Positions 33,720 through 57,057 of a DNA stretch of 64,000 nucleotides are shown piece after piece (positions within the stretch are counted from its first letter, which is position 1; the number at the start of each line of letters is the position of its first letter). The stretch spans positions 1 through 64,000 of the forward strand of contig NZ_JAPDOD010000034.1 of NCBI RefSeq assembly GCF_027587205.1, given 5' to 3'. The notes under the pieces were generated by a model. That model made no database searches and was not told the origin of the DNA. It worked only from the letters and a program-made list of their open reading frames with translations. Made by a program: the position numbers and the translations under genes. Source of the stretch: Solirubrobacter ginsenosidimutans (lineage in GTDB: Bacteria; Actinomycetota; Thermoleophilia; Solirubrobacterales; Solirubrobacteraceae).

Positions 33720-33769
33720 CACCAAGACGCCGTACAGATCACGGCCTCCGGGATTCAGATTTCGTGAAG
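33720..33769 (-). promoter_or_regulatory. Ion-regulon element, copy a (mgtC)
   Basis: Minus strand, four heptamers at offsets 1, 12, 33 and 44: CTTCACG, CTGAATC, CTGTACG, CTTGGTG. It ends 22 bases before ATG 33697. A CATGAT six bases before the ATG may be the -10 box. Confidence 0.75.
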
Positions 33770-33782
33770 CCAGTGCCAGGCG

Positions 33783-33832
33783 ACACCACATGTGGTGTTG
33801 ACATGGTGCCATGACGGTGCCATACTGGCGCC
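33783..33832 (+). promoter_or_regulatory. Promoter and operator of the RHH gene, probably leaderless
   Basis: A perfect 16-bp palindrome ACACCACATGTGGTGT (33783-33798) overlaps the -35 box TTGACA (33798-33803). After exactly 17 bases comes CATACT (33821-33826), and the ATG follows six bases later at 33833, so transcription should start at or next to the A of the start codon. Three near-identical GGTGCCAT/GGCGCCAT words lie in the spacer and start region. The downstream gene encodes a ribbon-helix-helix protein, so autoregulation is likely. Confidence 0.7.
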
Positions 33833-34324
33833 ATGGACCTGACCCCTTATGTGGATGCACTCCGCCGGGACCTCGCCGTCGCCGCGGAGGCCGGCGGGGA
33901 GGAAGCGCGCGCGCTCGCCGAGCGCCTCGCTGCCCCGCTCGACTCGTCGGTGCGGCTGATGCTGCTCGACGCGCTGTCGGCCGCCGCCGACGAGATCACC
34001 CGCGAGCTCGCGCCCGCCTCGGTGGAGCTGCGCCTGCGCGCCGGCGATCCCGAGTTCGTCGTCGCGACGCCGCCCGCTCCGCCGCAGGAGCCCGAGCGCG
34101 ACGCCCCGCCGGCGCCCGAGCTCGACGAGGCGGCGACGGCGCGCATCAACCTGCGCCTGCCCGAGCAGCTCAAGGCCGAGGTCGAGCAGGCCGCGAGCCG
34201 CGACCGGCTCTCGGTCAACTCGTGGCTCGTCCGCGCCGCCGCTGCGGCGGTCACCGCCGAGCCCCGCGGGCCGAGCCAGCGCGGCGGACGGATCGGCCAG
34301 TCCTTCACCGGGTGGGTGCGCTGA
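33833..34324 (+). CDS. Ribbon-helix-helix (HicB/CopG-like) DNA-binding protein
   Basis: A 163-residue protein: helical N-terminus (1-75), Pro-rich acidic linker, then a C-terminal RHH fold (ARINLRLPEQLKAEVEQAAS, RLSVNSWLVRAAAAAVT, about 103-141). RHH dimers bind short palindromes. The promoter has matching repeats, so it probably represses itself and the following genes. The stop overlaps the next start (TGATG), linking it to the DUF4097 and DrrAB genes as one operon. It may be the regulator of that exporter. No toxin partner is present. Confidence 0.88.
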   Translation: MDLTPYVDALRRDLAVAAEAGGEEARALAERLAAPLDSSVRLMLLDALSAAADEITRELAPASVELRLRAGDPEFVVATPPAPPQEPERDAPPAPELDEAATARINLRLPEQLKAEVEQAASRDRLSVNSWLVRAAAAAVTAEPRGPSQRGGRIGQSFTGWVR

Positions 34325-35172
34325 TGTCCGCGTTCGAGACTCCGCAGCCGATCTTCGCCACGGTCGACGTGGTCCTGGGCGATGTCCGGATCACCGCCGG
34401 CGAGCGCGACACGACCGTCGTCGAGGTCCGGCCCAGCGACGCCACCAACAAGGAGGACGTCGCCGCCGCCGAGCAGACCCGCGTCGAGTTCTCGGCCGGA
34501 CGCCTGCTGGTCAAGGCTCCCAAGCTGCGCTCGTGGCTGCCGCGCCAGACCGGAGGGTCGCTCGACGTCACGATCGAGCTCCCCGCGGGCTCGCAGCTGC
34601 ACGGCACCGCGCAGATGGCCGATATGAACTGCGAGGGCCGCTTCGGCGACTGCCGGTTGCGGCTGGGGATCGGGCAGATCCGCCTCGAGCACGCCGGCAA
34701 GCTGGATCTCAAGAGCGGCGCCGGCGACATCGAGGTCGATCACGCCGGCGGCCATGCGGACATCACGGTCGGCTCGGGCGAGGTGCGCGTCCGCGAGCTG
34801 GCGTCGAGCGCGGTGATCAAGAACTCCAATGGCGATTCGTATGTCGCGGACGCCGCCGGCGAGCTGCGCCTCAAGTCGGCCAACGGCAGCATCGTCGTCG
34901 ATCGCGCCCAGGCCGGCGTCGTCGCCAAGACCGCCAATGGCGACGTGCGCGTCGGCGCGGTGGCGCGCGGCGCGGTCGTGCTCGAAACGAGCATCGGAGA
35001 CGTCGAGGTTGGCATCCCGGAGGGCACCGCGGCGTGGCTCGACGTGAATGCGACCGCGGGTCGCGTGCACAACGCACTCGAGGGCTCGACCGCGCCCGAC
35101 GAGTCGGCCGACAAGGTCGAGCTGCGGGCGCGGACGTCGCTGGGGAACATCGAGATCCGGCGGGCGCGATGA
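34324..35172 (+). CDS. DUF4097-type beta-helix protein
   Basis: A 282-residue protein built of repeating strands (LDLKSGAGDIEVDHAGGHAD, ELRLKSANGSIVVDRAQAG, VAKTANGDVRVGAVARG, VLETSIGDVEV), the adhesin-like beta-solenoid of DUF4097. No signal peptide is seen. In actinobacteria this type often sits between an RHH regulator and a DrrAB exporter, as here; overlaps of 1 and 4 bases on the two sides show translational coupling. The role is unknown, perhaps sensing at the membrane face. Confidence 0.88.
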   Translation: MSAFETPQPIFATVDVVLGDVRITAGERDTTVVEVRPSDATNKEDVAAAEQTRVEFSAGRLLVKAPKLRSWLPRQTGGSLDVTIELPAGSQLHGTAQMADMNCEGRFGDCRLRLGIGQIRLEHAGKLDLKSGAGDIEVDHAGGHADITVGSGEVRVRELASSAVIKNSNGDSYVADAAGELRLKSANGSIVVDRAQAGVVAKTANGDVRVGAVARGAVVLETSIGDVEVGIPEGTAAWLDVNATAGRVHNALEGSTAPDESADKVELRARTSLGNIEIRRAR

Positions 35173-55432: not shown

Positions 55433-55995
55433 TCGCCACGCACTTCATCGTCGCCGCCGTCGCGATCGTCGTCGGCGCGCTCGGCGGCTTCGCCTACGCC
55501 CGCCACCGCCGCAAGCTGGAGTCCGCCGGCGCCGGGTCGGTGCGGCGGATCCTGCTCCCGTTCACCGGCACCGCGATCTCGCGCCGCTCGCTCGACGCGG
55601 CCCTCCGGCTCGCCCGCGCCGAGGACGCCACGCTGGTGCCCGCGTTCCTGGCCACCGTTCCGCGCCACCTGCCGCTCGACGCCGCCGTCCCCGCCCAGTG
55701 CAACGTCGGCATGCCGCTGCTGGAGGCGATCGAGCAGGCCGCCGCGACGGCTGCGATCCCCGTCGACTCCCGCGTGGGCCGCGGCCGGACCTACCGCCAC
55801 GCGCTCGCCCTCCTGCTCGAGCAGGAGCCGGTCGATCGCGTGATCGTCCCCGCCGCCGGCGATGCCCGCGGCGGCCTGTCGGGAGATGACCTCGTCTGGC
55901 TGCTCGAACGCGCGCCCGCCGAAGTCCTGATCCTGCGTCCCGGGTTCACCGACGACCGCCGGATCACCGGCGACGCCGTGCGCGGGCACTTCTAA
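55429..55995 (+). CDS. Membrane-anchored universal stress domain protein
   Basis: A 188-residue protein: N-terminal membrane helix (IVAAVAIVVGALGGFAYAR), then a Usp-type domain (RRILLPFTGTAISRRSLDAA, PVDRVIVPAAGD, LLERAPAEVLILRPG). It overlaps the KdpD-like gene by four bases and ends the kdp operon. As it adds a membrane anchor plus Usp domain to the soluble KdpD fragment, the two could form a split sensor; this is inference. It converges with corA after five bases. Confidence 0.8.
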   Translation: MIATHFIVAAVAIVVGALGGFAYARHRRKLESAGAGSVRRILLPFTGTAISRRSLDAALRLARAEDATLVPAFLATVPRHLPLDAAVPAQCNVGMPLLEAIEQAAATAAIPVDSRVGRGRTYRHALALLLEQEPVDRVIVPAAGDARGGLSGDDLVWLLERAPAEVLILRPGFTDDRRITGDAVRGHF

Positions 55996-56000
55996 GGCCG

Positions 56001-56984
56001 TCAGATCCAGCCGCGACGCTTGAACGTCGCGAACAGGACGATGGCGACGAGCAGCATCAGCGCGAGCGCGAACGGATAGCCGAGCCCCCAGCCGAGCTCG
56101 GGCATGTGCTCGAAGTTCATGCCGTAGACGGTGCCGACGATCGACGGGGCGAAGAGGATCGCCGCCCAGGCGGAGATCTTCTTGACCTCCTCGTTCTGCG
56201 CATTGGACGTCTCGCTCAGCGCTTTGGTCTCGAGCGTGAGGTTGACGCTGAGGATGTTCTGCAGCAGCTCGCGAAACCCGAAGGCCTGCTCCTGGATCCG
56301 CAGCGCGTGATCCTGGACGTCGCGCAGGTAGCGCCGCTCCTCGACGTCGACGGCCTTGGCGTCCATCAGCTCGTCGAGGATCGCGACCAGCGGCTTGGTC
56401 GCGCGCTGGAAGACGATCACCTCGCGCGCGAGCTCGTAGATCCGCCGCGAGACGTGCGGGCTGCCGTCGAAGACGTCGTCCTCGATCTCGTCGATGTCGT
56501 TCTCGATGCCCTCGACGACGGGCGCGTAGCAGTCGACGACGCGATCCAGGATCGCGTGCACGATCGCCCCGGTCCCGCGCTGGAGCAGGTCGGGACGAGC
56601 CTCGAGGCACTCACGCACACCGGCGAGGTCCGGCGCCTCGCCGTGGCGCACCGTGATCACGAACTGCGGCCCGGCGAAGACGTGCACCTCACCGAACTCG
56701 ACCGTCTCGGTCTCATCCACATAGCGCGCGGGGCGAAGCACCAGGAACAGCGTGTCGCCATAGCGCTCGAGCTTCGGGCGCTGGTGCGCGTTCACGGCGT
56801 CCTCGACGGCGAGCGCGTGCAGCTCGAACTCTCGCGCGACCGCGATGAACTCCTCCGCCGACGGCCGGTAGAGGCCGATCCACGCGATCCCGCCCCCGTC
56901 GCGGCACGCGTCGAAGAGGTCGTCGAGGTCGTCGGGCGCGGCGAACCGCCGGCCGTCCCGGTAGATGGCGCGATCAACGATCAC
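56001..56984 (-). CDS. corA: CorA magnesium/cobalt channel
   Basis: A 327-residue CorA channel for Mg2+ (also Co2+, Ni2+). The selectivity motif is in VYGMNFEHMPEL near residue 288, between the two C-terminal membrane helices (ISAWAAILFAPSIVGTVYG and ALALMLLVAIVLFATF), ending in a basic tail. The long N-terminal cytoplasmic domain forms the pentameric funnel. GTG 56984 is supported by its 23-base distance to element g. This ties Mg2+ transport into the K+ regulon. Confidence 0.95.
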   Translation of the reverse strand: MIVDRAIYRDGRRFAAPDDLDDLFDACRDGGGIAWIGLYRPSAEEFIAVAREFELHALAVEDAVNAHQRPKLERYGDTLFLVLRPARYVDETETVEFGEVHVFAGPQFVITVRHGEAPDLAGVRECLEARPDLLQRGTGAIVHAILDRVVDCYAPVVEGIENDIDEIEDDVFDGSPHVSRRIYELAREVIVFQRATKPLVAILDELMDAKAVDVEERRYLRDVQDHALRIQEQAFGFRELLQNILSVNLTLETKALSETSNAQNEEVKKISAWAAILFAPSIVGTVYGMNFEHMPELGWGLGYPFALALMLLVAIVLFATFKRRGWI

Positions 56985-57007
56985 CTGTCGCCGACGCTAC
57001 GCACGCG

Positions 57008-57057
57008 GCCGTCAAGAGCGCGCAAAGATCGGGCGCTCCGCCATCAAGATCTCGTGA
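57008..57057 (-). promoter_or_regulatory. Ion-regulon element, copy g (corA)
   Basis: Minus strand heptamers CTTCACG, CTTGATG, CTTTGCG, CTTGACG at offsets 1, 12, 33, 44, ending 23 bases before GTG 56984. TAGCGT nine bases before the start is a possible -10 box. Confidence 0.78.

What the first reader, a model, noticed from the sequence alone, without database searches (positions are those of the whole stretch)
33720..57057. A 50-bp four-unit element repeated eight times before K+ and Mg2+ genes defines a regulon
Eight copies (33720-33769, 37105-37154, 37172-37221, 46084-46133, 46277-46326, 46337-46386, 49292-49341, 57008-57057) share four heptamers near CTTSAYG at offsets 1, 12, 33 and 44. 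Each pair has an 11-bp period and the pairs are two turns apart. Seven copies end 22 or 23 bp before a well-supported start and the eighth 23 bp before an in-frame GTG. The genes behind them are mgtC, a membrane peptide, an orphan kdpA, kup, an aminotransferase-kdpE operon, kdpFACB and corA. Fixed geometry and shared function argue against chance. I know of no described element with this layout.
Basis: partly seen in the sequence, partly recalled or inferred. Interest (0 to 1): 0.95.

Follow-up and report, generated by a model that had tools for sequence, protein, structure and literature searches.

The report
Four-part KdpE switch runs potassium regulon
Eight copies of one 50-base, four-part DNA switch sit in front of potassium and magnesium transport genes in this likely Solirubrobacterales bacterium and are predicted to be bound by its potassium regulator KdpE; E. 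coli's own potassium-pump promoter carries the same four-part layout, although the papers I could read describe only its first half as KdpE's site.

Summary
In detail: eight copies share a 7-4-7-14-7-4-7 layout (unit spacing 11, 21, 11), with leave-one-out scores of 35-49 against 11.3 for the next best place in the window and 14.3 in simulated DNA. Five lie on the minus strand; the eighth is at 57010-57059. A profile from 27 sites finds the element in 99 of 232 related genomes; in 28 genomes 38 of 55 hits precede kdpF/kdpA, an APC-Usp permease, mgtC, corA or KdpD-C/KdpE genes. Its 11-bp pairs match the KdpE half-sites of E. coli and, reverse-complemented, the KdpE site of Mycobacterium smegmatis, so it is a KdpE-type box. 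New is the second pair: spacing 32 is best in 31 of 107 kdpA upstream regions of other classes (null 12 of 856) and in E. coli. Most likely two KdpE dimers bind, the downstream one in place of a -35 box (absent in all eight copies), on mostly leaderless promoters. No binding or expression was tested; the nearest genome has one copy, so the eight-site regulon is lineage-specific.

The parts
33720..33769 (-). four-unit element c1, 22 bp before mgtC ATG
33008..33697 (-). mgtC (leaderless start predicted at 33697)
   Evidence: Pfam PF02308; start
37105..37154 (-). four-unit element c2, 23 bp before a 43-aa peptide; divergent from c3
36950..37081 (-). 43-aa peptide; by eye similar (EPRLA..V.RQR) to the peptide behind the divergent element in L186
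   Evidence: similarity by eye only
37172..37221 (+). four-unit element c3, 22 bp before orphan kdpA
37244..38899 (+). orphan kdpA without kdpB/kdpC beside it
   Evidence: PF03814; TIGR00680 493 bits, over cut-off 387.7
46084..46133 (-). four-unit element c4, 22 bp before the 34-aa HHF peptide that leads the kup gene group
45957..46061 (-). 34-aa peptide (EDHHFxxPTVTP); peptides with HHF motif sit behind elements in L186 and L202
   Evidence: similarity by eye
45502..45957 (-). 151-aa protein without Pfam/NCBIfam match; relatives lie behind elements in L177 and L182
43605..45515 (-). kup, K+ uptake
   Evidence: PF02705
46277..46326 (-). four-unit element c5, 23 bp before a GTG; followed by a very stable hairpin region
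46145..46253 (-). predicted short transcript from c5 (MFE -62.3 kcal/mol, z -4.69), GC hairpin possibly a terminator
46337..46386 (+). four-unit element c6, 23 bp before the aminotransferase-GT25-kdpE gene group; divergent from c5
46410..47822 (+). class-III aminotransferase
   Evidence: PF00202
47819..48577 (+). glycosyltransferase family 25 protein
   Evidence: PF01755
48588..49274 (+). KdpE response regulator, presumed reader of the element
49292..49341 (+). four-unit element c7, 23 bp before the kdp operon
49365..49531 (+). 26-aa frame (49365-49445) and kdpF (49442-49531)
   Evidence: frame boundaries from the sequence
49534..53927 (+). kdpA, kdpC, kdpB (in that order)
54365..55432 (+). 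KdpD sensor half without kinase
   Evidence: PF02702; best NCBIfam model NF038185, 330 of 550 bits
57010..57059 (-). four-unit element c8 (corrected register), 25 bp before corA GTG
56001..56984 (-). corA, Mg2+ transport
   Evidence: PF01544

Best explanation
The element is most likely a double KdpE operator-promoter: the upstream 11-bp pair of units is predicted to be the classical KdpE box and the downstream pair a second KdpE dimer site that would stand in for the missing -35 box, ahead of a -10 box and a start codon that would often also be the transcription start. Shown by sequence: the eight copies; the 11/21/11 spacing; a -10-like hexamer 9-10 bp after the last unit in the window and 10-11 bp after it in Firmicutes; no -35-like hexamer at normal distance in the eight copies; the same layout before kdp operons in Firmicutes, E. 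coli and two other Gammaproteobacteria, and reversed in Actinomycetes; recurrence before K+/Mg2+ genes in relatives. Inferred: that KdpE binds all four units, that two dimers bind together, that phosphorylation under K+ limitation triggers binding, that the downstream dimer touches sigma region 4 as PhoB does (recalled), and that transcripts are leaderless. In the window this would couple kdp, the orphan kdpA, kup, mgtC, corA, short peptides and kdpE itself (positive autoregulation through c6) to one signal. No KdpD kinase half was found in the window, so the phosphate donor would have to come from elsewhere in the genome.
For: Element strength and register. E. coli K-12 kdp promoter, read from NC_000913: TTTTATA-N4-TTTTACA-N14-TTTTGCG-N4-CTTTGCA; the published KdpE half-sites TTTATA-N5-TTTACA within a footprint of -72 to -50 (PMC3264566, passages) are the first pair, and unit 1 of seven window copies starts at -72/-73 if the start codon is +1. 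The M. smegmatis minimal KdpE site CCGTAAAGAAACCATCAAGGCC (PMC5401905) reads, reverse-complemented, CTTGATG-N4-CTTTACG. KdpE residues R193, R200 and T215, needed for binding in E. coli (abstract), align with R, R and T of the window KdpE (alignment; I counted with a 2-residue offset of the PDB chain). Spacing test whose matrix carries no spacing: 31 of 107 kdpA upstream regions outside Solirubrobacterales have 32 as best pair spacing (Firmicutes class 13 of 30, Actinomycetes 15 of 36, Gammaproteobacteria 2 of 12, Alphaproteobacteria 1 of 24, others 0 of 5) versus 12 of 856 shuffles, and E. coli gives 32. Element in 93 of 117 genomes with a close KdpE and 6 of 115 without (overlap by hand; Fisher 5.5e-34). 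In 28 genomes (about 146 Mb) 55 hits at E<=0.01; 38 precede kdpF/kdpA (28), APC-Usp permease (5), mgtC (2), corA (1) or KdpD-C/KdpE (2) (hand tally). Start codon at +22/+23 in 44 of 66 distinct elements, 26 of 47 of those not used for training. No hexamer 15-19 bp before the -10 matches TTGACA at more than 3 of 6 in the eight copies.
Against: No binding or expression data. Of the 55 genome-wide hits 12 have no assigned gene, 3 precede the 151-aa family and 2 the HHF peptide. The closest genome by kdp genes (G194, KdpB 92%) has one element in 9.3 Mb; I did not examine the promoters of its mgtC, corA or kup. In Actinomycetes 14 of the 15 spacing-32 elements are reversed relative to kdpA and farther away, so a promoter role of the downstream pair cannot hold there. 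Alphaproteobacteria do not show spacing 32. In E. coli the -10 is ambiguous by sequence (TACCCT 10 bp or TCTACC 8 bp after unit 4), and a -35-like TTGCGA (4 of 6, 18-bp spacer) overlaps unit 3; the gammaproteobacterial L237 and the Firmicute L273 also have 4-of-6 matches at 19 bp, so unit 3 may double as a -35 box there. The E. coli footprint as cited covers only the first pair, and one 22-bp pair suffices for binding in M. smegmatis. The window KdpE scores 211 bits against an NCBIfam KdpE cut-off of 325. Six genomes (G033, G059, G085, G108, G113, G187) have an element without a close KdpE match. KdpE presence and kdp presence are confounded.
Confidence: 0.74

Rival explanations
1. Only the upstream pair is bound by KdpE; the downstream pair is a promoter element (such as a -35 box in E. 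coli) or the site of another protein, kept at fixed distance because RNA polymerase must be positioned.
For: The published E. coli footprint ends at -50; a single 22-bp pair is enough for binding in M. smegmatis; units 3 and 4 vary more than unit 1; in E. coli a 4-of-6 -35-like hexamer overlaps unit 3.
Against: Units 3 and 4 have the same CTTNAYG-like sequence and 11-bp period as units 1 and 2; in the eight window copies unit 4 is 9-10 bp and unit 3 20-21 bp from the -10, neither a usual -35 distance (about 17 bp, recalled), and no -35-like hexamer is found at 15-19 bp; the two-pair arrangement also occurs reversed in Actinomycetes.
Confidence: 0.17
2. Another OmpR/PhoB-family response regulator, not KdpE, reads the element.
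For: 7-bp repeats with 4-bp spacers are typical of the family, e.g. M. tuberculosis PhoP (abstract start in search listing); three relatives have 8, 9 and 11 regulator matches at E<=1e-30, KdpE included.
Against: kdp context in several phyla, match to two experimentally found KdpE sites, element frequent with a close KdpE and rare without it, kdpE inside an element-led gene group in the window and in G114.
Confidence: 0.07
3. Repeated DNA without regulatory function (mobile element, or chance in GC-rich DNA).
For: Eight copies within about 23 kb.
Against: Scores far above simulated DNA, variable unit letters with fixed geometry, fixed distance to starts, recurrence before the same genes in many genomes.
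Confidence: 0.02

Closest known systems
E. coli KdpE box (kdpFABC promoter; PMC3264566, abstract and passages read)
   Same: 11-bp direct repeat TTTATA-N5-TTTACA, footprint -72 to -50, before kdpF; the genome shows the same four-unit 50-bp layout
   Different: only the first pair is described there; E. coli KdpE is called single-target (PMC7657598 and PMC8249747, passages; the former also lists 31 ChIP-exo peaks, most taken as spurious), here eight elements; the E. coli kdpF start codon lies about 30 bp past the -10 region, so it is not leaderless by sequence
M. smegmatis KdpE 22-bp site (PMC5401905, one section and passages read)
   Same: reverse complement is a CTTGATG-N4-CTTTACG pair, the same units as in the window
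   Different: opposite orientation; one pair described; the paper states no noticeable similarity to other KdpE sites
PhoB/PhoP boxes of the OmpR/PhoB family (recalled; PhoP abstract start)
   Same: 7-bp units with 4-bp spacers; a downstream box ahead of the -10 without a -35 box is PhoB-like (recalled)
   Different: two pairs 32 bp apart with 14 bp between them, not contiguous repeats; K+/Mg2+ genes rather than phosphate

Membership tests
KdpE operator | pair of direct repeats with 11-bp period, TTTAYA-like core | tested here: met
   two such pairs in each of 8 copies; CTTNAYG is the GC-rich form
KdpE operator | upstream pair at about -72 to -50 of the start site | tested here: inconclusive
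   met in seven copies if the start codon is +1; start sites not mapped
KdpE operator | lies before kdpFABC in genomes with KdpE | tested here: met
KdpE operator | bound by KdpE | not testable with these tools
   no binding data; contact residues conserved
KdpE protein (window 48588-49274) | best match among response-regulator families and conserved DNA contacts | tested here: met
   top NCBIfam model is KdpE; best PDB matches 6lgq, 4kny, 4kfc; R, R, T conserved
KdpE protein (window 48588-49274) | NCBIfam NF007820 cut-off 325 bits | tested here: not met
   211 bits
PhoB-type class II promoter | regulator box ends about 10 bp before the -10 hexamer and no -35 box | tested here: met
   eight window copies: gap 9-10 bp, no -35 match above 3 of 6 at 15-19 bp; the criterion itself is recalled
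PhoB-type class II promoter | the same in the E. coli kdp promoter | tested here: inconclusive
   -10 ambiguous (gap 8 or 10) and a 4-of-6 -35-like hexamer overlaps unit 3
Leaderless transcript | RNA 5' end at the start codon | not testable with these tools
   inferred from -10 ends 6-7 nt before most starts; leaders are likely in L177, L182, L197

The most novel reading that the evidence does not exclude
The KdpE operator of bacteria is a dimer-of-dimers site: two 11-bp pairs exactly 32 bp apart, the second taking the place of the -35 box. This holds even for the E. coli kdp promoter, where the second half has gone undescribed, and the M. smegmatis site belongs to the same element read backwards. 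Solirubrobacterales expanded this single-target switch into a multi-operon K+/Mg2+ regulon of largely leaderless genes.
Probability: 0.5. Interest if true: 0.82.

Novelty: new variant of a known kind. Interest (0 to 1): 0.7.

Why it matters
KdpDE is a model two-component system whose E. coli regulator is called single-target. A second pair at a fixed distance, shared by Gammaproteobacteria, Firmicutes and Actinobacteria, suggests that the functional operator is larger than the cited footprint, offers a way for activation to reach the -35 region, unites two sites described as unrelated, and gives a specific matrix for finding K+ regulons. It also shows how a one-operon switch could grow into a K+/Mg2+ regulon.

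Tried and rejected
Chance or repeat DNA: rejected. RNA element: no Rfam match at the gathering score in 30-60 kb. A -35 reading of units 3 or 4: rejected for the eight window copies, open for E. coli. Whole-genome check of the window's own organism: impossible, none is held. Finding the exact M. smegmatis 22-mer inside a four-unit element: 0 of 297 genomes of the genus group of M. aurum matched, so this link rests on the published letters and on other mycobacterial loci (L004, L025, L228). Alphaproteobacteria: spacing 33 was best in 4 of 24 and 2 of 24. In the spacing tests the fragmentary kdpA loci L234, L235, L323 and L326 were left out before counting. Literature searches; nothing in the listings or in the passages read describes a second KdpE pair, but subscription papers (e.g. 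the original footprint paper) are not held and most listed papers were not opened. Seen: PMC3264566 (outline with abstract, passages), PMC5401905 (one section, passages), PMC3938482, PMC5458449, PMC7657598 and PMC8249747 (passages); all others as search listings only.
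Full report
What is there. Oriented, they read CTTCACG aaat CTTGATG N14 CTKNACG NNNN CTTNACG, followed by 9-10 bases, a -10-like hexamer (CATGAT, CACAGT, GATCAT, GATGAT, GATCTT, TAGCTT, CAGGAT, TAGCGT) and, 6-9 bases on, ATG or GTG. Five are on the minus strand. Leave-one-out scores are 35.4-49.0, next best in the window 11.3, best in six simulated windows 14.3. 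c2/c3 and c5/c6 stand back to back.

What is beside it. Pfam gives mgtC, orphan kdpA, kup, a class-III aminotransferase, a glycosyltransferase-25 protein, a response regulator, kdpF, kdpA, kdpC, kdpB, the KdpD sensor domain, a Usp-domain protein and corA. The regulator's best NCBIfam model is KdpE, below that model's cut-off (211 of 325 bits), and its best solved relatives include E. coli KdpE. The KdpD matches the non-kinase model best (NF038185, 330 of 550 bits). In relatives the kinase half (DUF4118-HisKA-HATPase in L200) is a separate frame, often next to kdpE; a search with E. coli KdpD found only the sensor half in the window.

Relatives. In 232 genomes of that order group, 117 have a close KdpE (E<=1e-55) and 99 have the element (profile R1 of 27 sites, eight of them from the window; E<=0.01, strict filters). 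By hand overlap this is 93 of 117 against 6 of 115 (Fisher 5.5e-34). Presence of kdp genes confounds this association.

Genome-wide specificity. With laxer filters on 28 chosen genomes of about 146 Mb in total, 55 hits reach E<=0.01, one to six in each of 27 genomes and none in G065, whose kdp element scores weakly with the weight matrix. Contexts by hand: kdpF/kdpA 28, APC permease with Usp domain 5 (KimA-like by recalled architecture; domains), mgtC 2, KdpD-C/KdpE 2, corA 1, 151-aa family 3, HHF peptide 2, unassigned 12. In six close genomes there is a gap between 21.9 and 17.2 bits. Among 66 distinct elements (score 22 or more, loci partly fetched because they hold kdp genes) 44 have ATG/GTG at +22 or +23, and 26 of 47 not used in training. 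Several others (L177, L182, L197, L198, L211) show a -10-like hexamer but a longer leader.

Identity. The E. coli K-12 kdp promoter, read from NC_000913, contains TTTTATA cttt TTTTACA ccccgcccgcagat TTTTGCG aaat CTTTGCA: the same 50-bp layout. PMC3264566 names TTTATA-N5-TTTACA as KdpE half-sites and cites a footprint of -72 to -50 (passages), which is the first pair alone. The M. smegmatis 22-bp KdpE site (PMC5401905) contains, reverse-complemented, CTTGATG-GTTT-CTTTACG, a pair of the window's units; that paper saw no noticeable similarity to other KdpE sites. R193, R200 and T215 of E. coli KdpE align to R, R and T in the window KdpE (counted by hand).

Is the second pair general? I scored pairs of 11-bp repeats in 630-bp regions upstream of 107 kdpA genes from four classes and a few others, any spacing from 18 to 60, both strands, with a hand-set half-site matrix that carries no spacing information. 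Spacing 32 was best in 31 of 107; shuffles gave 12 of 856. By group: Firmicutes class 13 of 30, Actinomycetes 15 of 36, Gammaproteobacteria 2 of 12, Alphaproteobacteria 1 of 24, others 0 of 5. At least three of the 31 (L265, L280, L304) score so low that they may be chance. An earlier run with a matrix from the 27 sites gave 28 of 107 against 24 of 1070. E. coli gives 32. Of the 15 spacing-32 elements in Firmicutes and Gammaproteobacteria I printed 14 (all but L265): the 12 Firmicutes have a TA-rich hexamer 11 bp on (TACAAT in 8), then a leader with a ribosome-binding-site-like stretch by eye. In Actinomycetes 14 of 15 are reversed relative to kdpA, and by eye no -10 follows on that strand in the rows.

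Mechanism. If the start codon is +1, the upstream pair sits where the E. coli KdpE box sits; the downstream pair ends 9-10 bp before the -10, and no hexamer 15-19 bp before the -10 resembles TTGACA at more than 3 of 6 places in the eight copies. By analogy to PhoB (recalled), the downstream dimer would contact sigma region 4, with the upstream dimer about three helical turns away (32 bp) on the same face of the DNA. In E. coli this is less clear: the -10 is ambiguous and a 4-of-6 -35-like hexamer overlaps unit 3. c6 precedes the gene group that holds kdpE, which would give positive autoregulation; in G114 and G120 the element stands before KdpD-C.

Limits. Nothing was tested at the bench. The nearest genome (G194) has one element; the regulon's breadth differs among genomes. 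Targets beyond the first gene of each group (kup, kdpE) depend on inferred co-transcription. The start codon of corA and the product of c5 are uncertain. E. coli KdpE is described as having one target, so the expansion is a difference in regulon rather than in the reading head.

Noticed in passing
window 46145-46253 (-): Behind c5 lies a very stable hairpin region (z -4.69) before c4 begins; c5 may make a short K+-controlled RNA, or its GTG frame may run into the c4 peptide.
   Followed up: partly
window 45957-46061 (-); L186 about 4630-4830 (+); L202 4600-5040 (-): Small peptides sharing an HHF..P.V.P motif behind KdpE elements in three genomes; function unknown, similarity seen by eye.
   Followed up: partly
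window 45502-45957 (-); L177, L182, L194: A 129-154-aa family (LDRxLAxG-like motif; the window member has no Pfam/NCBIfam match) recurs behind KdpE elements; phmmer links the window, L177 and L182 members, and L194 with L177.
   Followed up: partly
window 37244-38899: Orphan kdpA followed by an ABC-transporter ATPase gene, with no kdpB or kdpC beside it.
   Followed up: no
window 49365-49445: A 26-aa membrane-peptide-like frame precedes kdpF; L185, L188 and L192 show the same two-peptide start.
   Followed up: no
L118, L119, L125, L200 and others: KdpD is split in this order group: sensor half with kdpFABC, kinase half beside kdpE.
   Followed up: partly
L003, L004, L007, L009, L010, L017, L024: In Actinomycetes the same element lies reversed a few hundred bp upstream of kdpA.
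   Followed up: partly
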